Source: Phanerodontia chrysosporium
Taxonomy: Eukaryota; Basidiomycota; Agaricomycetes; Polyporales; Phanerochaetaceae
Direction of reading: 5' to 3'
Assembly (NCBI GenBank): GCA_001910725.1
Contig: MJGA01000046.1
Span: forward strand, 1-64,000
Length of the DNA stretch: 64,000 nucleotides
The notes under the pieces are model-generated. The model worked only from the letters and a program-made list of their open reading frames with translations, was not told where the DNA came from and did not search any database. Made by a program: the position numbers and the translations under genes. Positions within the stretch are counted from its first letter, which is position 1. Each line of letters begins with the position of its first letter. This document shows positions 46,621 to 60,983 of this stretch, in pieces.

Positions 46621-46629
46621 GGGTATCGC

Positions 46630-46771
46630 CAGACTCCAGCCACCCGCCCGTGGAGGTTGAAAACCAGCGTCCTCCAGCCTGGCGGCTGATGAGTCATCGT
46701 AATTACTCAAACTCAAAGAACGCTGTAACCTCCACGGGCGACTGGCGGCAAATATATGTAAACAATCCGGC
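46630..46771 (+). repeat. left terminal inverted repeat of the large transposon
   Basis: 142 bp, identical by eye to the reverse complement of 60833-60974. Contains an internal 14-bp inverted pair (46645-46658 with 46727-46740). Confidence 0.95.
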
Positions 46772-48193
46772 GCTTGTGTCAGCGGTCCTCGAAAATAATG
46801 TTGTGATGGATAGATCTCAAAAAAAAAATCGGATGAGATATTCTGTGAAAATGTATTGCATGAGCGCGCGCGCATAGCAAGCTGGCACGCTGTTTCCTCC
46901 TCGAAGTTCTCTGATGGCACATCCGAACACACCAGCTTCCCAGACAGGAAACTCTTCAGCATCAGCAGGAGAAGGTTACCCTTCCTTGGATGAGGCCCGT
47001 AAGGAAATACAGAAGGTGTTCGGACAACGGCTATGCAACTGGCAGTACCTGGTGACGAAAAACCTGCTTCAAAGGAAGCACGTCTTTGCCAGCGCCGCGA
47101 CCGGTATGGGCAAGACTCTGGCATTTCTGGCATCCATCGCATTCCGCCCAGGCGGGACACTCGTGATCGTCGCACCTCTCAACGTCCTAGGGAACCAAAT
47201 GGAAGAGCTCCTCACTAAGGCCGGGATATCAGCAATATCGATTAATGGAGACACTGCAACGGAAGCAAACTACCAGGTACATCCATCTCGATCCCACGGA
47301 AAGCGCAAGCTTGAATGTCCTTCTAGAATATGCGGAAGGGGCGGTTCAGGGTAGTCATCATCAGCCCTGAGCAGGCGATGAAGGAAAGGGGCGGCTTCCA
47401 GAAGCTCCTCGGAGACGCAGAGTTCTGTGCACGGCTGATTGGCATCGTCTTCGACGAGGCGCACTGTATCAGTCGCTGGTGTAAGTTTCGAGAGGAGTAC
47501 ATTGATATTAAACAGTTACGTCACCAGCTGCCAGACACACCACTAGTTTTCGTGTCGGCGACATTGACAACAGCTGCTGTTGAAGATATCAAACGCCTCT
47601 TCGCCCTCCCACCGGACAAGATTGTCGAGGTTCGGCGCCCGAACGATCGGCCGAATGTCTGCGTCGGGATACGGCAAATAAAGCATCCCGTCGAGAGCTG
47701 TCTTGACCTGGCGTTTCTCGTGCCGCAGAAATGGAAGGCCGGGGACGATCCTCCTGCGAAATTTGTTGCGTTCTTTAACAGCATCGCAGAGACCGTTACC
47801 GCGGCAAAAATGCTGAGAGCGAGACTACCGCCTGCGTACCGTCATAAAATTGTCTGGTTCAATTCCAGTTGCAGCGATGTGTTCAAGGCAGAGCAAGTCG
47901 AGCGCCTCAAACGCGGAGAGATCTGGGGTCTCTGCGCGACAGACTCATTCGGGTTGGTGAGTGGCCCGGGTCGTGTCATCTGGAAATGAGTACCTACTAA
48001 TGACGTGAGAAAGGGGGTGGACTTACCCAACATTATCCTGATAATTCAGTACCGAATTTCGGGGCTAGACATCGATACACTCTGGCAGCGGATCGGACGT
48101 GCAGCAAGGAACCGCCTATTACAGGGAACGGCGTTAGTCTTTGTTGAGAAGAAATACTTTGATGAAGTCAAGGAGAAGAAGGCGAAGAACAAA

Positions 48194-48793
48194 TGTCACA
48201 GTTTTTCGTCTTAACCCTTAGGGTTAGGGGCAGCAGGTGACAGAAGCGACTACTCCGAACTGTGACATGCAGAAGCGCTGGAGTGACAGCCCTAGGCTCG
48301 GGGCTGGTCACGTGATACGGCGGTCACGTGATGCGCACACGTGCGGTATCCCAGGGTCACATGGTCGAAGGTCTAGAAGCAGGCAAGGGTCTGGAAGCGC
48401 CGAGACACTCCGGAATGGACTAGAAAGTCCTGGAGGTCTCTGGACAGGTCCGGACAGTGCTGGAACGTTCTGGAGGTATCTGGGACATCGTAGGAACATT
48501 TAGGAACGTGTAGGGGAATGTAGGAATGCCTGTAGGGCACTAGCCAATAGCGTAGTAGGTATTAGATAGCTAGGACCCTGAACACCGGTCCCTGGGGACC
48601 TGGTACACATGTATATAAACCCTGAGGGCTGGGGGTGCCTCCCCAGCTTCAATCTCATCGCATCTCACCTCTCTAGTCTCTATACCTCGTCTTCAAGCTT
48701 GGCTACACCCTTTGTAGTCCAAGTAAACCTTTACCAGTGAGTATTGCTGGTTGGTTTGGTGTATAGGCGCTAGGGCGGCGCATTTTTGTGATA
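48194..48793 (+). repeat. 5' LTR of chromovirus
   Basis: 600 bp. U3 carries two TCACGTGA palindromes (48308-48315, 48324-48331), a further CACGTG (48338-48343), a run of CTGGA-type words including GAACGTTC (48463-48470), and a TATA box (48612-48619). The likely RNA start is near 48645. Confidence 0.95.
48612..48619 (+). promoter_or_regulatory. TATA box in 5' LTR
   Basis: TATATAAA, 33 bases upstream of AGCTTCAATCT, the segment that is complementary to the primer-binding site. That spacing fits a transcript starting there. Confidence 0.75.
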
Positions 48794-48795
48794 GA

Positions 48796-48806
48796 AGATT
48801 GAAGCT
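48796..48806 (+). promoter_or_regulatory. self-complementary primer-binding site of the retrotransposon
   Basis: AGATTGAAGCT, two bases after the 5' LTR, is the exact complement of AGCTTCAATCT at 48645-48655 in the LTR. This is the arrangement of Tf1/sushi-type self-primed elements, in which the 5' end of the RNA folds back to prime reverse transcription. Confidence 0.75.
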
Positions 48807-49102
48807 AGCCAACCTACTCCACCTTTGGTGGCCTAGGTTATTGCTTTGGGTTCTGGGGGCTTGTTTGAACAAGTGCTTTTGCGCTTTGTTCAGTTTTTTG
48901 CCGATCCACAGGCGTAAGTGGGCACTATAGTACCTTTTTAGGTACAGACAGGGGAACGTGGTGTAACCCACCTCAGAGGGCTTTGCCTGCGGACGAGTAA
49001 CCCCTGTTGTAGTGCTGGACTAAGGGTGTAATACCCTGTCCAACCAGTTTTAGCTGTGTGGCGTGGAAACCCACAGTAATACCCCTTTCTCTTCGTTGAG
49101 GG

Positions 49103-49915
49103 TTGGCTGGCAGGAAAGCCTTGCGCTTTGCCTGTGTGGAGAAGTTTTCTGGCTTGTGTACACAGGCTGACCCGTGTTTACTAGTGCCTAAAGCTGCTAA
49201 GAACCGTTTTGTCCTTGCTAAGGACGAGAGCTCTGGCAAACCCTTGCTTGAGCGCATCAAGATCTCGAACCTTCACCGCTTCAAAGACGTTGGGAAGCCG
49301 CGCCCTGCGTACAAACCTCGCACTACACCCTACACCCCTGTCCCTGGTCGTCGTGAAAGGCTTGCTCGTGAAGCAGACTTGAACGACTTCAAGCACCAGC
49401 TTCAGCTCGAAGACTATCGCAACGAACAGCGCAAGCGCCGCCTACTCGATCGCATCGCGAACGCCCCTCCCCCTCTACCCCTCATCGAGCGTATTGAACC
49501 TCCCCCTACTCCCCCTATCGAAGTCAAACCCATTCCCAAGGACCTTCGCTTTCACACCAACACTCAGGTCCATCAGCTGCGCGACTACGGACGAAAGTTC
49601 AACGGCGCCCTTAACCACTTGGGTCCGTTCTTTCAGAAGCTAGACGAGCAGCGTTTTCGAGTTGGGTTGACTGAACACGAGCTCTACATCTTGGGCTTGT
49701 TCAAGGAGAGGTTCGATAACATTCGCAAACACCTTCAGACCATCGTCGAGACGAAGGAGTACACCACGAGGGAGTGGAAGAAGATTTCGAGGGATTTGAA
49801 GAAGGCAGGCGCACATAGCTTGACTGAGCTTAAGCCACGCTTCGCTGAGCATTGCAGGGAGCTGATTCAGGAGTTGGGTGAAGATTGGTTGTTTTTGGAG
49901 AAGAACCTCGATTAG
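49103..49915 (+). CDS. Met-less ORF between 5' LTR and gag of the chromovirus, function unknown
   Basis: An open frame of 270 codons after an in-frame TGA at 49097-49099, without a single ATG. The first listed codon is TTG. The translation is basic, then Pro-rich (ANAPPPLPLIERIEPPPTPP), then helical and charged, ending GEDWLFLEKNLD. The composition and length suggest a real, selected coding region rather than leader noise. Translation would need a spliced leader exon, a non-AUG start, or fusion by frameshift. No family recognised. Its end is 30 bases before the gag ATG. Confidence 0.55.
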   Translation: MAGRKALRFACVEKFSGLCTQADPCLLVPKAAKNRFVLAKDESSGKPLLERIKISNLHRFKDVGKPRPAYKPRTTPYTPVPGRRERLAREADLNDFKHQLQLEDYRNEQRKRRLLDRIANAPPPLPLIERIEPPPTPPIEVKPIPKDLRFHTNTQVHQLRDYGRKFNGALNHLGPFFQKLDEQRFRVGLTEHELYILGLFKERFDNIRKHLQTIVETKEYTTREWKKISRDLKKAGAHSLTELKPRFAEHCRELIQELGEDWLFLEKNLD

Positions 49916-49944
49916 TTTTTGTATCCGCGCGTTTTTGAATCAAG

Positions 49945-51525
49945 ATGTCGCTCAATTCAAATCCTGTTGACTTTGGTTTGCGTTCTGCTTCGAGTTCAAG
50001 TGGCATGGACCCTTGGGGAGCGTTAGAACTTGGCTCTATGGCTGAGGGAGGCCCTACCCCAGTTTTGGCCGCTGCGCCGCTTTCGACCTCTTACGAAGAG
50101 TACAGCCAGTCATGGGTACAAGCCGCTCAGGAAGGACTGACTCCTGGCGACTTTAAGGCCCTCGTTGACAGCCTGGGTAACTGGGTAAAGGCTGAAATAG
50201 CTCAAGTAAGGTCGGAAATGGGTTCAGAAGTCCTTCGCTTGAAGGAAGCCCTTCGCAAACGCAAAACCGAGGCCAAGACACTTCAGGAGCAGATAGACAT
50301 TCTTGAGCAGACTAGACAGCACTTGTCTGCGCAGATAGCAGAGGCTCAGAACCAAAATCGCATTTTGCAGAATGCTATGCAGGTGCTGAAGCAGGAAAAC
50401 GAGAGCTTGAAAGTGTTGGTTCAGCAAGGCACTAGTGGAGGCAACGTTGGGTTGTCTCAGTCTTTGTTCCCTACCATGAAGGAGCCTGACACCTTTAATG
50501 GTAATAAGGCTAGCAAGCTGGATGACTGGCTCGAGTCGATGGCACTCTGGTTGCGCCACCGTGGCGTAATGGACGACGAAAAGAAGATAGAGACGGCGAT
50601 GACTTACCTGCGAGGTTCAGCAAAGAAGGTCATGCAAGAGTACTTCGACAAGGTGGCAGACTCAAAGCCACTTGGTACTTGGACCAACTTTGTGAACGAA
50701 CTCCAGAAAGGATTCCAACAGACCGACAAGAAGGACAGGGCAAGGGCAGAGTTTGAGCAGCTCGTCACCAAGAAAGGGACGAACGAGAAGACTTTCAACG
50801 AGTTTGCCGCTCGTTTCCGTTCGCTGGCTTGCCAAACTGGCTTCTCCAACGAAGAACTGTTGGTTAAAGCCTATGCCCATACCCCTCGTGCCGCTGCCGA
50901 TGTACTGGCAGCCCGTGGTCGTGCTCAGTGGGCTACGACCTGGGATGGTTGGTTGAAGGATGTTCAGGAGATTCTGCAGGATCAACGTCTCTTGACGGGC
51001 ACCGTACTCTCTGGACAGCCTCAGTCGTCGAAAGACCCTGACGCTATGGATGTCGACGCCTTGAAGAAGGGCTCAGCCCAGGGCAAAGGCAAGACAGCCA
51101 AAGTTCAGAAGGTTGCCATGTCGTTCGAGGAGGCGAAGAAGAAAGGCTGCTGCGCTCAGTGTGGAGGCAAAGGCCATATCGCCAAGGAGTGTCCATCGAA
51201 GAAGAACAACTCAGGTTCTTCGACGTCGTCGAGTAAAACCACCAGTGCACCGGTGGCCAGTTCATCAAAGGCTTCGCCTTCAAAGGGAAAGGAGAAGGAT
51301 AAGGGCTCTCGCCACACGAAGAGCAGTGTGCGCGAGGTGTACGCCAGCGACTCGGAGAGATTCCAGGAGGTAGCCTCTGACGAGGAGTCGAGCTCAGATA
51401 GCTCAGAAGAAGAAGATACCCCCAAGACCAAGCAAAAGAAGAAGTCGTCTTCGAAGGAGAAGGCGCAGAAGATTAACCGCGTGGTGTTCTCAGACGATGA
51501 GGATTTTCTGCAGGGACCGATGTAG
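49945..51525 (+). CDS. gag: retrotransposon Gag (capsid/nucleocapsid) protein
   Basis: 526 aa from the ATG at 49945. A coiled-coil-like segment (about residues 75-165, EALRKRKTEAKTLQEQIDIL) precedes the conserved capsid region (PDTFNGNKASKLDDWLESMA ... GTWTNFVNELQKGFQQ). A CCHC zinc knuckle CAQCGGKGHIAKEC (about residues 396-409) binds RNA. The C-terminus is Ser/acid/Lys-rich. Gag packages element RNA into virus-like particles. It ends in the -1 frame relative to pol with a short overlap. Confidence 0.93.
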   Translation: MSLNSNPVDFGLRSASSSSGMDPWGALELGSMAEGGPTPVLAAAPLSTSYEEYSQSWVQAAQEGLTPGDFKALVDSLGNWVKAEIAQVRSEMGSEVLRLKEALRKRKTEAKTLQEQIDILEQTRQHLSAQIAEAQNQNRILQNAMQVLKQENESLKVLVQQGTSGGNVGLSQSLFPTMKEPDTFNGNKASKLDDWLESMALWLRHRGVMDDEKKIETAMTYLRGSAKKVMQEYFDKVADSKPLGTWTNFVNELQKGFQQTDKKDRARAEFEQLVTKKGTNEKTFNEFAARFRSLACQTGFSNEELLVKAYAHTPRAAADVLAARGRAQWATTWDGWLKDVQEILQDQRLLTGTVLSGQPQSSKDPDAMDVDALKKGSAQGKGKTAKVQKVAMSFEEAKKKGCCAQCGGKGHIAKECPSKKNNSGSSTSSSKTTSAPVASSSKASPSKGKEKDKGSRHTKSSVREVYASDSERFQEVASDEESSSDSSEEEDTPKTKQKKKSSSKEKAQKINRVVFSDDEDFLQGPM

Positions 51526-54500
51526 AGTCTGCGACATCTGGTCCGTTTTTAGATTTCCTTTACCCTCCCGACTCAGTAGAATGTATTAGATCAGTTTTGG
51601 AATCGAGAAAAGTCTCTAGTTTGCCCTCTAAATCGAGCTTTATCGTTCCAGTAACTTTGAGTCAGGGTAAGGAAATCAGAGTGCAGACTACCGCGCTGGT
51701 TGATTCGGGGGCCTATGCTGTGTTCATTAGCCATCGCTTCGTCAAGAAGCATAAGCTGAAGACGAACCAGCTGGCCAGGGAGATACGCGTTTACAACGCA
51801 GATGGCTCCAGGAACAAGTGTGGCAGTATTGAGGAGTATGCTTGGCTCGACGTAGCCGTAGGGGACCATGTCTCCAGACAAGCATGCCTCATTACAGATC
51901 TAGATGGAAAGGACATGTTCCTCGGCTTTAGCTACTTGAAGAAGCATAATCCTGAGATAGATTGGGATAAGGGCGAGTGGAAGTACTCCAGATGCCCAGA
52001 TTCTTGTCGCTTCACCAGCCACAAGGCTCAAGTAGCACAAGCAGAACTCGAAGAACCTATGGATGAGGACTTCGAGGAGGAAGAAGAGGAGCCTTGGCTT
52101 CAGTGGGTCGATCCTTCCACCCCAGATGGCCGCGTTTTGGCAGTAACCTGCCGGAAGATCGCAGCGATGTGCAGTATCCGTTCGCTGGAGGGAATCGAGG
52201 GCTGGGAGCAGCTTGTCCCTGCACAGTATCAGGACTATGGGGACGTGTTTTCGAAGCGTGCAAGCGAACGGCTACCCGTACGAAAGCCTTACGACCACGC
52301 TGTCGAGTTTATCGACGGAGCTACCCTACCTCGACCAGCTCGTAATTACTCGCTGTCGCCAGAAGAAAGGAATTCTCTGGACGAGTGGATTCAGGAAAAT
52401 CTCGCCAAGGGATACATCAGACTGAGTAAATCCCCGTTGGCAGCACCAGTCTTTTTCGTGAAGAAGAAGGACGGTTCATTGCGCTTGGTGCAAGACTACA
52501 GAAAGCTGAACGAAGTCGTCAAGAAAGACCGCTTCCCTATACCCAAGATCTCAGACCTTATAGATCGACTATCTAAGGCCAGTATATACACCAAGATTGA
52601 CCTTAGATGGGGGTATAACAACGTCAGAATCAAGGAAGGAGACGAGTGGAAGCTGGCCTTCATCACACCTTTCGGTTTATACGAACCTACAGTGATGTTC
52701 TTCGGCCTCAGCAATGCACCAGCAACCTTTCAGCGCATGATGAACCATATTCTCGATGACCTGATTCGAGAAGGGCATGTCATGGTCTACCTAGACGACA
52801 TTCTCATCTTCACGAACGACTTGGACCACCATCGGCGATTAGTTCGCGAGGTATTGCAGCGGCTACGTGACAACGACCTGTTCGCTAAGCCAGAAAAATG
52901 CTTCTTCGAGACGGATAGCATCGAATACCTCGGAATGATCATCAGCAAGGGGTCGGTTCAGATGGATCCATCCAAGGTAGATGGCGTTTTATCTTGGCCC
53001 ATACCCAAAAGGGTCAAAGATGTCCAGGCTTTCCTGGGTTTTGCCAACTTCTACCGACGGTTTATTCGAGACTTTGGCAAGATTGTTCGCCCATTGTCAG
53101 AGCTTACCCGCAAAGGCAAAGAGTGGGAATGGGGGCCTGAGCAGCAGGATGCCTTCGATACACTCAAAAGAGCGTTCACTACTGCGCCTATTCTCAAGAT
53201 TCCAGACGACGAGCACCCTTTTAGGCTCGAATGCGATTCGTCAGACTTTGCTACGGGGGCTGTACTTGAGCAACTGGGCAAGGATGGCCTTTGGCACCCT
53301 GTCGCGTTTTACTCCAAGGCGCTAGGCGTACACGAGCGCAACTACGAGATATACGACAAGGAGATGCTAGCCATTATCCGCGCGCTGAAGGAATGGCGCC
53401 ACCACTTGGAGGGACACCCTCTACCATTCGAAATATGGTCAAATCACCAGAATTTGACCTATTTCCGCAAGGCACAAGACTTGACGCGACGTCAAGCACG
53501 TTGGAGTCTTTTCCTCACACGTTTCCACTTCAAGTTGGAGCACAAGCCTGGAAAGACGATGAAGCGGGCTGATCCAATGTCCAGGAGGCCAGATCATGAA
53601 TTGGGGGTGGATTGTGACAATCGTGAAAAAGTCCTTTTGAAGCCAGAATATTTCGCGATTCGAGCCATGCAACCAACCCATTCATTGATAGTGGACGATA
53701 GCAAACTGCTAGAAAGGATCAGAAAAGCCTTGCTGAACGACGAAGTCACCAAGTCATACAAAGACCTGATGTTGAAAGGACCAAGAGAGTTCGGGAAGGA
53801 CTTAGCGGAATGGCACCTCGAGGACGGGCTACTACTGCACCGAGGCAAGGTGTATGTGCCCAAGGACGACAAGATTAGGGCGGATCTACTCAAGTTACAC
53901 CACGACTTCCCTGGGGCTGGACACCCTGGACGATGGAAGACGTTGGAGTTGCTGTCGCGCAACTACTGGTGGCCAGGAATGTCAGTTTACGTCAAGAAGT
54001 ATGTCGCAGGCTGCGAAGTATGCCAGTCGCATAAAAACGTCAACCAGAAGCCTGCTGGCCTGCTACAACCGAACGAGGTTCCGTCGGAACCCTGGGAGAT
54101 AATCTCATGCGACATGATCACGGACTTGTCTGAGTCGGACGGTTACAACGCTATCTTCGTAGTCGTTTGCCGCTTAACCAAGCGAGCACATTTCCTCCCC
54201 ATCACCAAGGAGTTTTCAGCCAAGGATCTGGGAAATTTGCTCTATGAGCGTGTTTGGCCTTTGCACGGCCTACCCAGACAGATCATTTCGGACAGAGGAA
54301 CGCAGTTCGCCGCGAAACTCTTCCAGGAATGGTGCAGACTCTTGGGGATCAAGTCAGCGATGACTACAGCGTTTCACCCTCAGGCAGACGGTCAGACTGA
54401 GCGAGTTAATCAGTCATTGGAGCAGTATCTGCGCTGCTACACAAGCTTTAGGCAGGACGACTGGGCATACCTTTTGCCCTCTGCCGAGTTTGCGTACAAC

Positions 54501-55658
54501 AACCAGGTGCATGAAAGCACCAAGAACTCGCCATTCTTCGTTGAATATGGCCGTCACCCGCGCATGTTCCCAGAGCAGGACCGTGTTTCAAGGTTGTCAG
54601 AACTGGACGACTGGACGAAGCTTAGACAGGAGGCCCAAGATCAGGCAAAAGCCGCGCTCGTGCTGGCTGCAGAGCGAATGAAGTGGTACTACGACCAGGG
54701 TAAATCAGAACCCTTGTTCAAGGTCGGAGACCGTGTTTGGCTTGACGCAAAGGATCTGAACCTTCGGGTTCCCTCCAAGAAACTGGCACCAAAGCGAGTA
54801 GGCCCCTACGAGATCGTAGAGCAGCTGGGACCGGTCACCTTCAAGCTGAAGTTACCAGCCCATGTGAAGATTCACCCGGTCTTCCACGCGAGCAAGCTCA
54901 CGAAGCACGTCGAGGATGAGGTTGCCAATCGCACGCGCAAACCCCTGCCACCCATTCGTGTGGGTGATGACGAGGAGTACGAGGTCGAGCAGATCGTAGA
55001 TGCACAGCCAGACTCTAAAGGCTGTGTCATGTACCGAGTACGGTGGAGAGGCTACGACGAGCATAGCGACACATGGGAATACTTGCCCAATCTCAAGCAC
55101 GCTATGGCAAAGGTCAAACAATTCCACAAGAAATACCCAGATGCGCCGAAGGCAATTTTCCTTCTGCAACGCCACCACGACGAGGAGGATGAGTTTTTCG
55201 TGCGCGAACTCGCGCTGCTCCAATCTTGGGGAGCAGACGACCAGTTCGAGGTCGAGCTCATGAATAAGGACGCAAAACTCCCCTCACGTGGTTCGCCAGA
55301 AAGCGCAGGGTTGGATCTTTTCATCACGGAAGACCTTACACTCAAGCCCCATGATCGCAAGCTAGCGCCAACTGGCCTTCGAATGTGTACTCCACCGGGT
55401 ACCTACGCTCGAGTCGCACCACGGAGTGGCCTCAGCCTCAGAGGCATCGACATAGGAGCAGGCGTTATTGACCGAGATTATCGAGGAGAGCTCAAAATTC
55501 TACTCATCAACAACTCGCCCGACACCTTTACATTCCACAAGGGTGATCGTGTCGCTCAACTCGTGCTCGAAAGAATCTCCTACGCCGAACCAACTTCGGT
55601 TTCTCGCCTCGACTCAACCATTCGCAACAGCGATGGTTTTGGCTCCACTGGTATTTAG
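51501..55658 (+). CDS. pol: retrotransposon Pol: protease-RT-RNase H-integrase-chromodomain-dUTPase
   Basis: The frame opens after a TGA at 51498, overlaps gag by 25 nt in the -1 frame and runs to 55658 with no internal stop. Domains in order: aspartic protease (ALVDSGAYAVFIS, near 51696); reverse transcriptase with YLDD (near 52788); RNase H, whose usual T-D-H-K/Q motif reads WSNHQNLTYF (53432-53461); integrase zinc finger H-H-C-C (LHHDFPGAGH ... CEVCQSHK) and core (SCDMITDL, SDRGTQF, QTERVNQ); chromodomain (YEVEQIVDAQ ... RVRWRGYDEHSDTWE, 54978-55085); and a C-terminal dUTPase with all five motifs: SAGLDLF, PRSGLS, GVIDRDYRGEL, GDRVAQLV, RNSDGFGSTG. The chromodomain probably directs insertion to marked chromatin. 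The dUTPase would keep uracil out of the cDNA. Confidence 0.94.
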   Translation, partial: GFSAGTDVESATSGPFLDFLYPPDSVECIRSVLESRKVSSLPSKSSFIVPVTLSQGKEIRVQTTALVDSGAYAVFISHRFVKKHKLKTNQLAREIRVYNADGSRNKCGSIEEYAWLDVAVGDHVSRQACLITDLDGKDMFLGFSYLKKHNPEIDWDKGEWKYSRCPDSCRFTSHKAQVAQAELEEPMDEDFEEEEEEPWLQWVDPSTPDGRVLAVTCRKIAAMCSIRSLEGIEGWEQLVPAQYQDYGDVFSKRASERLPVRKPYDHAVEFIDGATLPRPARNYSLSPEERNSLDEWIQENLAKGYIRLSKSPLAAPVFFVKKKDGSLRLVQDYRKLNEVVKKDRFPIPKISDLIDRLSKASIYTKIDLRWGYNNVRIKEGDEWKLAFITPFGLYEPTVMFFGLSNAPATFQRMMNHILDDLIREGHVMVYLDDILIFTNDLDHHRRLVREVLQRLRDNDLFAKPEKCFFETDSIEYLGMIISKGSVQMDPSKVDGVLSWPIPKRVKDVQAFLGFANFYRRFIRDFGKIVRPLSELTRKGKEWEWGPEQQDAFDTLKRAFTTAPILKIPDDEHPFRLECDSSDFATGAVLEQLGKDGLWHPVAFYSKALGVHERNYEIYDKEMLAIIRALKEWRHHLEGHPLPFEIWSNHQNLTYFRKAQDLTRRQARWSLFLTRFHFKLEHKPGKTMKRADPMSRRPDHELGVDCDNREKVLLKPEYFAIRAMQPTHSLIVDDSKLLERIRKALLNDEVTKSYKDLMLKGPREFGKDLAEWHLEDGLLLHRGKVYVPKDDKIRADLLKLHHDFPGAGHPGRWKTLELLSRNYWWPGMSVYVKKYVAGCEVCQSHKNVNQKPAGLLQPNEVPSEPWEIISCDMITDLSESDGYNAIFVVVCRLTKRAHFLPITKEFSAKDLGNLLYERVWPLHGLPRQIISDRGTQFAAKLFQEWCRLLGIKSAMTTAFHPQADGQTERVNQSLEQYLRCYTSFRQDDWAYLLPSAEFAYNNQVHESTKNSPFFVEYGRHPRMFPEQDRVSRLSELDDWTKLRQEAQDQAKAALVLAAERMKWYYDQGKSEPLFKVGDRVWLDAKDLNLRVPSKKLAPKRVGPYEIVEQLGPVTFKLKLPAHVKIHPVFHASKLTKHVEDEVANRTRKPLPPIRVGDDEEYEVEQIVDAQPDSKGCVMYRVRWRGYDEHSDTWEYLPNLKHAMAKVKQFHKKYPDAPKAIFLLQRHHDEEDEFFVRELALLQSWGADDQFEVELMNKDAKLPSRGSPESAGLDLFITEDLTLKPHDRKLAPTGLRMCTPPGTYARVAPRSGLSLRGIDIGAGVIDRDYRGELKILLINNSPDTFTFHKGDRVAQLVLERISYAEPTSVSRLDSTIRNSDGFGSTGI

Positions 55659-55693
55659 GCTTCACCAGGAGGTTCAGCTAGAATTGGGGGTAA

Positions 55694-56293
55694 TGTCACA
55701 GTTTTTCGTCTTAACCCTTAGGGTTAGGGGCAGCAGGTGACAGAAGCGACTACTCCGAACTGTGACATGCAGAAGCGCTGGAGTGACAGCCCTAGGCTCG
55801 GGGCTGGTCACGTGATACGGCGGTCACGTGATGCGCACACGTGCGGTATCCCAGGGTCACATGGTCGAAGGTCTAGAAGCAGGCAAGGGTCTGGAAGCGC
55901 CGAGACACTCCGGAATGGACTAGAAAGTCCTGGAGGTCTCTGGACAGGTCCGGACAGTGCTGGAACGTTCTGGAGGTATCTGGGACATCGTAGGAACATT
56001 TAGGAACGTGTAGGGGAATGTAGGAATGCCTGTAGGGCACTAGCCAATAGCGTAGTAGGTATTAGATAGCTAGGACCCTGAACACCGGTCCCTGGGGACC
56101 TGGTACACATGTATATAAACCCTGAGGGCTGGGGGTGCCTCCCCAGCTTCAATCTCATCGCATCTCACCTCTCTAGTCTCTATACCTCGTCTTCAAGCTT
56201 GGCTACACCCTTTGTAGTCCAAGTAAACCTTTACCAGTGAGTATTGCTGGTTGGTTTGGTGTATAGGCGCTAGGGCAGCGCATTTTTGTGATA
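55694..56293 (+). repeat. 3' LTR of chromovirus
   Basis: 600 bp, equal to the 5' LTR at all rows compared except 56277. Preceded by GAATTGGGGGTAA, a weak polypurine-tract candidate. Confidence 0.95.
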
Positions 56294-57953
56294 ACAAAGC
56301 CGTGAGAGAGGAGCGGCTGAAGCAGAAGCGGGAAGGTGTCATGAAGAACATACCTGTGTCCAAGCGCCAGAAAGTGGACGGCGACGCTGTTGATCGTCAG
56401 GATGCAGTGCCGACGACTACAGCTGATAGTGAACCTGAGGACGGGGAGGAGCTAGATGACGAAGAAGTATCAGACGAAAACGACTCGGACGAAGAGAATG
56501 ACACGGGCGCACCTCAGGAAAGTCAGAGACAAGACGAGGTGCGCCCATCACTAGTGCAAGGCCCCCCCACAACTGCAGAAGAGGCCCCCGACGAGGGGGA
56601 ACATACCCTGCTGATGCCGGATGATGAAGTCTTGGAGGAGCGACAGGCGATTTACCTGGAAGCGGCGCGTGAGCAGATGGTGACCAAACCGAGGATACAG
56701 AAGGCGAAGGCACCAGCAAAAGAGCCTGGGCCCAAGCTATTAGACATGGTGAATGCGGAGAGACGAGGGCTACAGTGCCGTCATGTTCCCGCGAGGCTGG
56801 CCTTCAATAGTGATCGCGCAGGTGGGTACATGTTACCGGAATTGGCATCAGGGTCACTGCCGCTCATCTTTCGCAAGAGCCCGATCCTCGCGTCTGCAAC
56901 CCCACGTCCCCCTCAGGATGCCATCGCTGTGCTTTCCCCCCTCCCCGTATTTGCTGCAATTTGCACCACCCATCACACTTCCAACAAGCCGTATTCCAGC
57001 CAGCTACCGACGTCTCAGCGAAGAAGCAGCCGCGCCGGTCCGCAATGCCCAAGGACTATCGCCGCCCAACAAATGCCGCTGCGCTCATCACCGCCCTCAG
57101 AACCTGGCGAGACTCCAAGACCGCCGAGGTCTTTGGTACGGACAGCCGGGATCTCATCGGAGGATGCATGGTGCTGCCGGAGGAAGTCCTGGACCGGATT
57201 GTTGACGGTGCGTATGCTGGGATTATCGTCTCTGCCCACGACATCGTCAAGCAAATCAACTGGACCGACTCATCGCTCTACGGCGATGAGTTGTCCGAGC
57301 TTATTCGCCGTCACGTACCCCTGATGCCCAACAGTGCTGTTACATCTGCAGCTGGCTGAGGTACGTTCATGCTATCGCTCGGCGGGCCCATTCATTCATA
57401 TCCCCCCCTTAGCTCCCAGCACACAGAAAGTACACGGCGGTACTGTGCAGAACGCAAAGCCTAAGAGCACTAGGAACGGGAGGGCCAAGCCTCCAAAGCC
57501 CACAAGCATCACGTCGGATTCCACCTCTGCTACGCAGCATCCGGGGCCAGGGCAAGGGGCACGGCAACGTTGTGGGCACTGCCGCATGCCTGGTCACAAC
57601 AGTGAGTTCGCCTCATCCCACTCGTCTGCTTATTCATGTCCCCGTCAGAACGAAGCTGCCCTCCTCTCAAGGTCACCATATCCGAGCCTGCGCAAGACGA
57701 AAATATCCCACCTCCAGATCTATCGGCTGAAATTCTCCGTCAACCGTCGCATCCATCCACGGCAGCACACCCATCCCCTACTAACATCGAGCAGTCTGGC
57801 TCCGTGCCTGCGTCAATACACCATGAGCTGGCGACAAGAATCGATGGACCGCCGATTACGGAGATGTCAGCGTTTTTTTGAGGCTTCCCCGTTCTCGTGC
57901 ACCACGCAGGGGTCGTCTTCGACGTATCCGATTGGATAGTCTATGGTAGGTAT

Positions 57954-60641
57954 TTACATGTCCAACTCAACATTAAGGTCGTCTAATTCCGGTACTAGGA
58001 CGCTCTCATCCTCGTCGTCTTCAGCTGTCGCCGCCCCCTTACTCTTCATCAGCGCCATGAGCCCTTTGTTTACCATGTTCAGAATCGGATAGTGACTCTT
58101 CCTTCCCGGCTGCGCCTTGTGTGGCCGCGTCTGGTCCATGTGCTTCTGTATGGCCCAGTAGGTATGGCCCATATTCGGCTCAGTATGGTGCGTGGAGATA
58201 TGGTTTAGCACCAGATTCCTCTCCAAGTTGACATGGCAGCTTCTGTAGACCTCCGTAAGCGTTGACTCCTTCGTAATAGCATCTATGGTTCTGTTAGGAC
58301 CCTTCTCGACATGTACGGTCTGTGTGTACGGTGAGTATGCTTCATTTACGTGGCTGATGATTGGCTCATACCTTGTTGAACTTGTTATAGAATTCAACCA
58401 CCCAGTCTACGCCTCGAAACTTGCCAGCGTGCCCCGTTGGGTTGATCAACATACTGTGTCGCACGGCGCGACTGCTCGGTAGACAGGCGCTCGATCAGCG
58501 GGGCACACACGGAGCAGCGCAGCGACATACCTCAAGCCAGGGTCATAGTAAAAGTGTACGTTCATGATGTGCTTGATTATTTCGGCTGCATACTTATGTT
58601 TCCCAGTCGCTTTGAAGATATAGGCCCACAGCTCCATACACAACTCTACTCGCCCTATATCACCGACATTCATAGCGTATGTGAGCTCCTCATATAGAAG
58701 ATAGATCTGGTTGATGATGAGGCAATTTTCTAGCTCGAAATCTCGGTCTTGAGCGCCTTGCGACCTCATCTCCTCTAGGTCCTTCGGCCGCGCGACATAA
58801 TTCATTGCAAGGTACTCCGAAAGGCTCATGATGTCTTCGATCGTAGGTTCTGACTTTGCCCACTCTTCTAGACTGGTATGGACGGCATTCCGCTCGTGAA
58901 CGAGCTCCTTCCAGCAGTCGAGGCGACGGCAGATGCCGTCGTGCTGGATCACTTGGTGCGTACGCCGGAATCCTATCTGTTTCGATGCAATCTTACCGGT
59001 CTCCTTCGGCCGTAGGATGCCGACGTGCGCCATGACTGACGTCGTGTCTTGATGGGTTGCAGTCGGCAATACCACGATCCTGTGCGTTGCTTCGCCGGCC
59101 GCCATTTTGAGGTGAAACAAACCAGCGACATAGACAGCAAATTGGAGGCAACGGACAGCGGTCCCTTCAAGACTCCAGACATTCTGCGCCCCCGCGATCC
59201 GCTCCCCAGTCCCGAGATCCCCGTGGAAGAGGATAAGATACTTGCGCATGTCTTCAATGAGTGTGGGATCTTCGACCTCATCCAGGTTGCCAACTCCTGC
59301 CTGCGCGAGCAACCTCTCCAAGGCCTCGATATTTCCGCTCACGGTCGAGTTCTCAATGTCCATGGTGCACACGGGAATGGTCTTTGTCTATAACAGGGGG
59401 ACTTGCTCGATGATCTCCGGCTTCGGTAAGTGCTCCTTGAATTTACGGAAATACTCTGGCCCTGAGTGCACCAGATCATAGGCAAACTTCAGCTTGTTGA
59501 AGCGGTCGCGCCAGTACATGCCGGAGGAGTCTGCTTTCCGATGCTCGGGATGCATCTGCGCAAGATTCTTCCAGTCTGGTGGCGGCGCTCGAGGCGTGCG
59601 GGCATCGGGGAGGGTGTCGTTCAATCGAGACTGCGACCACATCTTCGAGGAAATCCGTAGGTGTTCCTTCGTTATCCCTGGTGGGAGCGGGAAGACTAGC
59701 CCTGACGTCAAATGCTTCAGGGACATGGATTGAGCAGCTTCGCGTGTGAATTTCGCACTTTTCAAGTCTATATCGATGTTGTTGTACGCCCACGCAGCGG
59801 TGAGTGATTGCCCAAGTGTCACGATAGCTTTGTCAACATCTGCAGACAGCGATCGGATGGCCTTATTCGTCGTATCGACAGATATACTGACTCCGAGGTG
59901 TGACAGGACAGCAAAGACCTTCTCCGAGGTATTGTTGGCATGTGCGTGTATACCAATAATGCTTTGGAATGCGTTTGACATCTGATTCACCGTCATCATC
60001 AGGATGCTCAGAATACCAGTGATCCTCTAGGAAATATGTAAGCCGCTTCTTTCCTCTCCCGATGGGCTCCATTTACTCACGATCCTTCGAATAGCCTCTC
60101 GTCGCTCATCTATCACCCTCACTTCCGCGCGCTCTCCCTCGGCCAGGCCAGTCCGTGGTACAAGATCCTGATAGGCCAACCCGTCCGCTCCACTTCCCAG
60201 CGCCATCTCCACCATTCCATCCGGTCTTCCGCGCTTTCGCTTTGATCTCACGTCTCCGGCCCTGACCAAGTCGTTCAGCAGCTTCACGAGGCCCGGCGCC
60301 AGCTGTTGCATGCGCGTGTGCATTTTCCCAAGCTCGAATTCCTCAACCTGGCCCACGGTCGCTGTCGACGCGCTGAAGTGCCACCCAGCATCTGCGCTTG
60401 AGAGCGCAAGTAGCTCCTTCCGGTGTAAGTCGCTCTGCTTCTCTGCTATCCATTCTGCCATTACAGAGTGCTGATGCAGGCTTGACAGAAGATCTTGGGC
60501 CCGAGCGATCACTTCACTTCGAAATCGGCCCGCCGTTGTATGCTCTAGATGGTGCTGGTCAAGGATATGCAGTATAAGATCAGGAAAGGAGCCGATATTG
60601 TAGAAATTCAGCAGGTGCTGCAAATCTTCATAGAGAGGCAT
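57954..60641 (-). pseudogene. DUF6589-like protein, candidate transposase of the large transposon, broken by one stop
   Basis: Exons on the reverse strand: 60641-60081, 60026-58531, 58453-58372, 58304-57954, about 829 codons. An in-frame TAG at 59390-59388 (about codon 400) lies between VPLL and TKTIPV with no possible intron, so it is a nonsense mutation or a programmed stop. Blocks seen: VDTTNKAIRSL, YNNIDIDLKSAKFT, LKHLTSGLVFPLPPGI, YLILFHGDLGTGERI, LQFAVYVAGLFHLKMA, VGILRPKETGKI, INPTGHAGKFRGVDWVVEF. They resemble the basidiomycete DUF6589 family (recalled, not searched). The acids in NIDIDL, HGDLGTGERI and later YAAEIIKH could form a DDE-type site, but that is only inference. It lies tail to tail with the helicase (72 bp apart). 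Confidence 0.75.
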
Positions 60642-60832
60642 CGGCAGGGCACAGACGTGGGTATAGTCTACACTACGGCGGCGACATCGCGAACCGCAAC
60701 GCGCTCTGATGCATTACTGTCCTAATTTGGTATCCGCCCGCACACGAGATATTCGAATTACTCGAAAATGAGGCATCAATTATGCACGGCCGTCGCCGAA
60801 TGCGCGACCTCAGATATTCACTGCCAAGGGAT

Positions 60833-60974
60833 GCCGGATTGTTTACATATATTTGCCGCCAGTCGCCCGTGGAGGTTACAGCGTTCTTTGAGTTTGAGTA
60901 ATTACGATGACTCATCAGCCGCCAGGCTGGAGGACGCTGGTTTTCAACCTCCACGGGCGGGTGGCTGGAGTCTG
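60833..60974 (-). repeat. right terminal inverted repeat of the large transposon
   Basis: 142 bp, identical by eye to the reverse complement of 46630-46771. Followed by the GGGTATCGC target duplication. Confidence 0.95.
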
Positions 60975-60983
60975 GGGTATCGC

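What the first reader, a model, noticed from the sequence alone, without database searches (positions are those of the whole stretch)
46630..60974. Large DNA transposon carrying a RecQ-like helicase and a DUF6589-like gene
Identical 142-bp inverted ends and a 9-bp duplication GGGTATCGC enclose two convergent genes, a RecQ-like helicase with a CCHC knuckle and a DUF6589-like protein. No known transposase family is recognisable, so DUF6589 may itself be the transposase and the helicase its partner. I know of no described superfamily with this pairing, but I could not search.
Basis: partly seen in the sequence, partly recalled or inferred. Interest (0 to 1): 0.88.

Follow-up and report, generated by a model that had tools for sequence, protein, structure and literature searches.

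The report
Helicase-carrying mushroom transposon with DUF6589 transposase

The parts
46621..46629 (.). left copy of the 9-bp target duplication GGGTATCGC
46630..46771 (+). left terminal inverted repeat, 142 bp, starts CAGACTCC; contains an internal inverted pair (positions 10-29 and 98-117)
46914..48193 (+). RecQ-type helicase gene, 5' part: exons 46914-47276, 47327-47956, 48014-48193, cut off by the nested retrotransposon
48194..56293 (+). nested Ty3/Gypsy chromodomain retrotransposon with dUTPase, a later insertion: LTRs 48194-48793 and 55694-56293, gag 49945-51525, pol 51597-55658; 5-bp duplication ACAAA at 48189-48193 and 56294-56298
56299..57938 (+). RecQ-type helicase gene, 3' part; acidic linker and C-terminal region with the CCHC zinc knuckle (about 57571-57659, across an intron). 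End of the gene not fixed
57954..60641 (-). DUF6589 gene, the likely DDE transposase, several exons; main frame about 58524-59999 interrupted by a TAG at 59388-59390
59781..59783 (-). codon at the place of the first catalytic Asp (YDN motif); reads Asn in this copy, Asp in the C57 copy
   Evidence: read; the YDN motif is not found in the window copy
59217..59219 (-). second catalytic Asp (HGDLGT)
58393..58395 (-). proposed catalytic Glu (DWVVEF)
   Evidence: read; conservation
60833..60974 (-). right terminal inverted repeat, 142 bp, identical to the left
60975..60983 (.). right copy of the 9-bp target duplication

Best explanation
This is a cut-and-paste-type DNA transposon of the helicase-carrying AcademH kind. 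The DUF6589 protein is its DDE transposase (RNase H fold closest to P element and hAT transposases). It recognises the long inverted ends, whose internal inverted motifs are its likely binding sites, and joins them to target DNA with a 9-bp stagger. A self-encoded RecQ-type helicase works with it. Shown here: ends, duplications, copies, empty site, constant pairing of the two genes, fold match and conserved triad. Inferred: that DUF6589 cuts and joins the DNA, that the end motifs are binding sites, and that the helicase melts or clears DNA at ends or target, or helps repair. The window copy is a dead relic: Asp-to-Asn at the first catalytic place, a stop in DUF6589, and a retrotransposon in the helicase gene. 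Its intact ends could still be moved by proteins from other copies, as the short derivatives presumably were.
For: Identical 142-bp ends and a 9-bp duplication. 10 of 10 insertions with both ends read have perfect 9-bp duplications, in three families (seven re-checked by assertion in 68). Dispersed near-identical copies with different flanks, C124/C135 and C1/C113. Empty site at C71, 97.4% identical over the 3.4-kb joined flank. 15 of 15 helicase loci found lie beside a DUF6589 locus, median gap 2.7 kb, largest 19 kb. Helicase is RecQ type. DUF6589 models of two subfamilies: pLDDT 86.1 and 86.7; the best structural matches are DDE transposases, P element, Hermes and ISCth4. Triad conserved: 73 of 75, 75 of 75, and 50 of 54 with 21 gaps in one set; 26 of 26, 26 of 26, and 24 of 24 with 2 gaps across both subfamilies. 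Purifying selection between the window and C57 copies, dN/dS 0.08-0.15.
Confidence: 0.82

Rival explanations
1. DUF6589-plus-helicase elements are a DDE superfamily of their own, not Academ, which acquired a RecQ-type helicase independently (as KolobokH did).
For: No Academ sequence was compared; the fold is closest to P element and hAT; families differ in gene orientation, 12 of 15 convergent and 3 of 15 divergent; termini vary (TAGTCTCG, TAGGCTCG, CAGACTCC).
Against: Duplication length, a self-encoded helicase and the fungal host all fit what is published for AcademH.
Confidence: 0.15
2. A KolobokH element: a Kolobok transposase with a RecQ helicase, known from fungi.
For: KolobokH carries a RecQ helicase and was reported only from fungi (PMC9587614, passage).
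Against: Kolobok makes TTAA 4-bp duplications; here 10 of 10 are 9 bp of varied sequence. The C/DxxH signature is not met: the histidine is kept (74 of 74, 1 gap) but the residue three before it is Gly in these alignments.
Confidence: 0.01
3. DUF6589 is only a DNA-binding or accessory protein and the helicase, or an unseen host or trans-acting transposase, moves the element.
For: No activity data; Foldseek scores alone are weak.
Against: DDE folds rank first for both models; D-D-E triad conserved down to 20-22% identity; C124/C135 and C1/C113 are near-identical recent copies whose largest listed frames belong to DUF6589 and the helicase (the last 1.8 kb of C124 was not listed for frames); both genes under purifying selection in the window family.
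Confidence: 0.05

Closest known systems
AcademH lineage of Academ DNA transposons (Kojima 2020, Mob DNA 11:15; paper not held, known here from citing passages)
   Same: Helicase encoded by the element; 9-bp duplications within the published 9-10; inverted-repeat DNA transposon; low copy in Basidiomycota.
   Different: Transposase sequence not compared. Here the transposase is tied to Pfam DUF6589 and a P/hAT-like fold, and gene orientation varies between families.
KolobokH (Kolobok with RecQ helicase, fungi)
   Same: DDE transposase plus RecQ helicase in fungi.
   Different: TTAA 4-bp duplications and C/DxxH signature (PMC9587614, passage); both differ here.
P element and hAT (Hermes) transposases
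   Same: Best structural matches; RNase H fold with a large helical insert before the last acid; by counting from the alignment ends the third acid falls on or next to the Hermes and P-element Glu (their residue numbers recalled).
   Different: No RecQ helicase and 8-bp duplications in those families (recalled); no sequence similarity detected.
Plavaka and other CMCT transposons of fungi
   Same: DNA transposons found in Agaricomycetes.
   Different: CMCT elements make 2-5-bp duplications (PMC12730594, passage); no helicase was mentioned for them in the passages read.

Membership tests
AcademH | 9- or 10-bp target duplication | tested here: met
   10 of 10 insertions with both ends read have 9 bp
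AcademH | element-encoded helicase | tested here: met
   RecQ type (54, 55); present in three families with defined ends and beside 15 of 17 DUF6589 loci
AcademH | inverted-repeat ends | tested here: met
   142-bp identical ends in window and C57; C1 and C124 families have short inverted tips (TAGTCTCG; TAGGCTCG/TAGTCTCG) plus subterminal inverted repeats of 66 bp (89%) and 69 bp (77%)
AcademH | Academ-type DDD/E transposase by sequence | not testable with these tools
   no Academ reference sequence on hand; Kojima 2020 not held
AcademH | low copy number in Basidiomycota | tested here: met
DDE transposase (general) | RNase H fold | tested here: met
DDE transposase (general) | three conserved acids at the fold's catalytic places | tested here: met
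   D277, D473, E728 of P0014 (95); D298, D457, E721 of P0134: 61 of 61, 61 of 61, 53 of 53 with 8 gaps. Spatial closeness not measured: no coordinates available
KolobokH | TTAA 4-bp duplication | tested here: not met
   9-bp duplications of varied sequence, 10 of 10
KolobokH | RecQ helicase | tested here: met
KolobokH / hAT / P / MuDR / Dada | C/DxxH motif between second D and E | tested here: not met
   H508 74 of 74 with 1 gap; the residue three before it is Gly (GLFH)
hAT / P superfamily | 8-bp duplication (recalled) | tested here: not met
   9 bp (22, 41)
CMCT (EnSpm, Plavaka etc.) | 2-5-bp duplication | tested here: not met
   9 bp; family description from PMC12730594 passages

The most novel reading that the evidence does not exclude
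DUF6589 defines a DDE transposase superfamily separate from Academ, with a P/hAT-like fold, widespread in mushrooms and co-inherited with a RecQ-type helicase that sets its long 9-bp stagger.
Probability: 0.15. Interest if true: 0.65.

Novelty: new member of a known kind. Interest (0 to 1): 0.4.

Why it matters
It gives a probable function (DDE transposase) to DUF6589, a Pfam family of unknown function with hundreds of relatives (633 and 299 hits in two capped searches). Many mushroom 'hypothetical proteins' would then be transposon genes, not host genes. It also offers young, near-identical copies (C1/C113, C124/C135) in which to test why a cut-and-paste transposon carries its own RecQ-type helicase.

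Tried and rejected
Rejected: (a) that the CCHC knuckle comes only from the nested Gypsy gag. The gag has one (ORF 49945-51525), but the helicase also has one, shared with C57 (45). (b) KolobokH, by duplications. (c) D280 or D282 of P0014 as the first acid (the NIDID idea): 10 of 26 and 6 of 26 keep Asp, against 26 of 26 for D277 (111). (d) E636, E650, D659 and E664 as the third acid: E664 is not kept across subfamilies (10 of 26); the others are well kept (25, 24 and 24 of 26), so conservation alone does not exclude them. E728 was chosen because it also falls at or next to the catalytic Glu when counting back from the ends of the structural alignments.

Led nowhere: DUF6589 in IMG/VR viral contigs (167 pattern stretches, no relative); profile search of solved structures (8 matches, E 0.13 or worse, none a transposase); BFVD fold search (no match at E <= 0.001, 94); a first helicase protein search with one exon, which found a single relative; paper search for DUF6589, 0 papers in the held library. 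Families not listed by VIA-align are not thereby excluded.

Full report
OBSERVATION. The element runs 46630-60974. Its 142-bp ends are 100% identical as inverted repeats and the 9-bp GGGTATCGC flanks it. These are the only two matches of that word in the window; shuffles reach two matches in 10 of 100, but here they abut the two ends. Without the nested retrotransposon and one copy of its duplication the element is 6,240 bp by subtraction, close to the 6,195 bp of the C57 copy.

ANATOMY. The left gene is a RecQ-type helicase: best solved relative RecQ E 2.6e-27, with WRN, RECQ1 and BLM among the hits; recQ_fam E 4e-37 but 128 bits against a curated cut-off of 219.8, the query being only the 5' part of the gene. 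It has small introns and ends with a charged linker and a CX2CX4HX4C knuckle present in both long copies, spliced by eye. The right gene, on the other strand, matches Pfam DUF6589. Between positions 48194 and 56293 lies a Ty3/Gypsy element with gag, protease, reverse transcriptase, RNase H, integrase, chromodomain and dUTPase, LTRs 99.8% identical over the 602 bp aligned, and a 5-bp duplication. It splits the helicase gene.

COPIES. In the host genome (39.0 Mb, 145 contigs, unnamed) the ends occur in 14 matches that resolve into six insertions: the window; a second long copy at C57:586439-592633; three short derivatives at C80, C54 and C122 (1.4-1.7 kb); and one at C33 whose ends lie 42 kb apart, split by later insertions. 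All six have a perfect 9-bp duplication: GGGTATCGC, TGCACAGCC, GAACGTGAT, GGTTCCATG, GTCTGGCGG, GTGTGGATG. Window and C57 share 98.6% identity in the ends but 75-81% over the aligned long stretches. dS is about 0.7-1.1 and dN/dS 0.08-0.15 over three stretches, so both genes were kept by selection over a long time.

OTHER FAMILIES. DUF6589 gives 43 matches in the genome (a lower bound), which I grouped into 17 loci. Two further families have boundaries fixed by pairs of near-identical copies at different places: C124/C135 (7.7 kb, 98.9-99.3% identical over the stretches compared) and C1/C113 (6.1 kb, 99.9-100%). Their duplications are GGGAAGAAC, ATTTTGTGG, ATCATCCGC and ATGGGGAAG, again 9 bp. 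Both carry a RecQ-like helicase beside DUF6589. So 10 of 10 insertions with both ends read have 9-bp duplications; the ends of the remaining DUF6589 loci were not read. Tips are CAGACTCC, TAGTCTCG and TAGGCTCG.

PAIRING. Three helicase searches with one exon each (14, 15 and 13 matches) give 15 distinct loci, the weakest at E 1e-4 to 1e-6. All 15 lie beside a DUF6589 locus, median gap 2.7 kb, largest 19 kb. Of the 17 DUF6589 loci, 15 have a helicase; C73 and the fragment at C83 do not. A random place falls within 20 kb of such a locus with chance 1.7%. In 12 of 15 pairs the genes converge; in 3 of 15 (C124, C135, C2:943) they diverge. So the pairing is nearly constant but the arrangement is not.

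EMPTY SITE. The joined window flanks match C71 over 3.4 kb at 97.4% with a single target copy, GGGCATCGG. Differences cluster at the junction: 9 of the central 20 columns differ, 6 of them one gap, against a mean of 0.51; 12 of 3,383 overlapping windows reach that number. A scar of excision would look like this, but one site does not decide. Five other flank pairs (C57, C113, C1, C135, C54) have no empty site in the assembly; C124, C80, C122 and C33 were not tested.

TRIAD. The strand order fits an RNase H core: an Asp on the first strand, an Asp after a later strand, then a helical insert and a Glu in a late helix. Conservation is D277 73 of 75, D473 75 of 75, E728 50 of 54 with 21 gaps. In 26 rows that I chose from both subfamilies it is 26 of 26, 26 of 26, and 24 of 24 with 2 gaps; in the second subfamily alone 61 of 61, 61 of 61, and 53 of 53 with 8 gaps. 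Counting back from the alignment ends without gaps, the Glu falls on Hermes 572 in 5 of 6 Hermes rows for each model, and on P element 531 in both rows of the second model (530 in both rows of the first). The Hermes and P-element residue numbers are recalled, gap-free counting is an assumption, and no coordinates were available to measure distances.

STATE OF THE COPIES. In the window copy the first Asp (YDN) reads Asn (YNN), the main DUF6589 frame has a TAG, and the helicase is interrupted. The C57 copy keeps the Asp but has an apparent frame lesion in each gene, judged by eye, and SEAH in place of the helicase DEAH. Neither looks autonomous now. Intact ends and the short derivatives suggest movement by proteins supplied from elsewhere.

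COMPARISON. In the held library, AcademH is named in 7 papers (one is an unrelated medical paper). I looked at passages in five: two say something of substance, three only cite Kojima in their reference lists. A passage of PMC10045372 says AcademH makes 9 or 10-bp duplications and AcademX 3 or 4, and links this to helicase and nuclease. A passage of PMC10799480 says AcademH is low-copy in Basidiomycota, Ascomycota and Mucoromycota. The founding paper, Kojima 2020, is not held. KolobokH also carries RecQ (passage of PMC9587614) but Kolobok makes TTAA duplications. No held paper names DUF6589. Hence: a new member of a known kind, with the transposase now tied to DUF6589; membership by transposase sequence remains untested.

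MECHANISM. Most likely the transposase pairs the two ends, cuts them, and joins them to target DNA with a 9-bp stagger that host repair fills in. The helicase, present beside it in all three families with defined ends, would open DNA at the ends or target or clear repair intermediates. The cutting and joining follow from the fold and the duplications; the helicase step is inference.

Noticed in passing
48194-56293: Young Ty3/Gypsy chromodomain retrotransposon with a dUTPase domain at the end of pol (E 5.6e-38) and near-identical 600-bp LTRs, nested in the helicase gene. A paper on Tcn1-like chromoviruses that uses the word dUTPase appeared in a search listing (PMC2864245; not read).
   Followed up: partly
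49103-49915: A 270-aa open frame between the 5' LTR and gag of that retrotransposon has no Pfam match.
   Followed up: no
46621-46629 and own-genome contig C71:175373-175765 (L055): The empty-site allele differs from the filled one in a cluster exactly at the junction, including a 6-base gap; possibly an excision scar.
   Followed up: partly
46630-46771 and 60833-60974; L009: The ends are far more alike (98.6%) between the two long copies than the long stretches between (75-81%), and left and right ends are identical within each copy: selection on the ends, or copying between them.
   Followed up: partly
46639-46658 and 46727-46746; C124 right end; C1 left end: Ends carry internal inverted pairs or self-complementary stretches in all three families (4 of 6 ends of the window, C124 and C1 elements), candidate protein-binding sites.
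   Followed up: partly
L048 (C2:940500-948500): In the C2:943 element an 8-kb gap separates DUF6589 and helicase; open frames there look by eye like a hAT transposase. Not tested.
   Followed up: no
own-genome contig C33:21928-63931 (L013-L015): One copy is split by later insertions so that its ends, with the same 9-bp duplication, lie 42 kb apart.
   Followed up: partly
P0002 and P0121 (public proteins): A DUF6589 relative and a DEAD-helicase relative both come from a contig of 11,363 bases, suggesting the same pairing in another genome.
   Followed up: no
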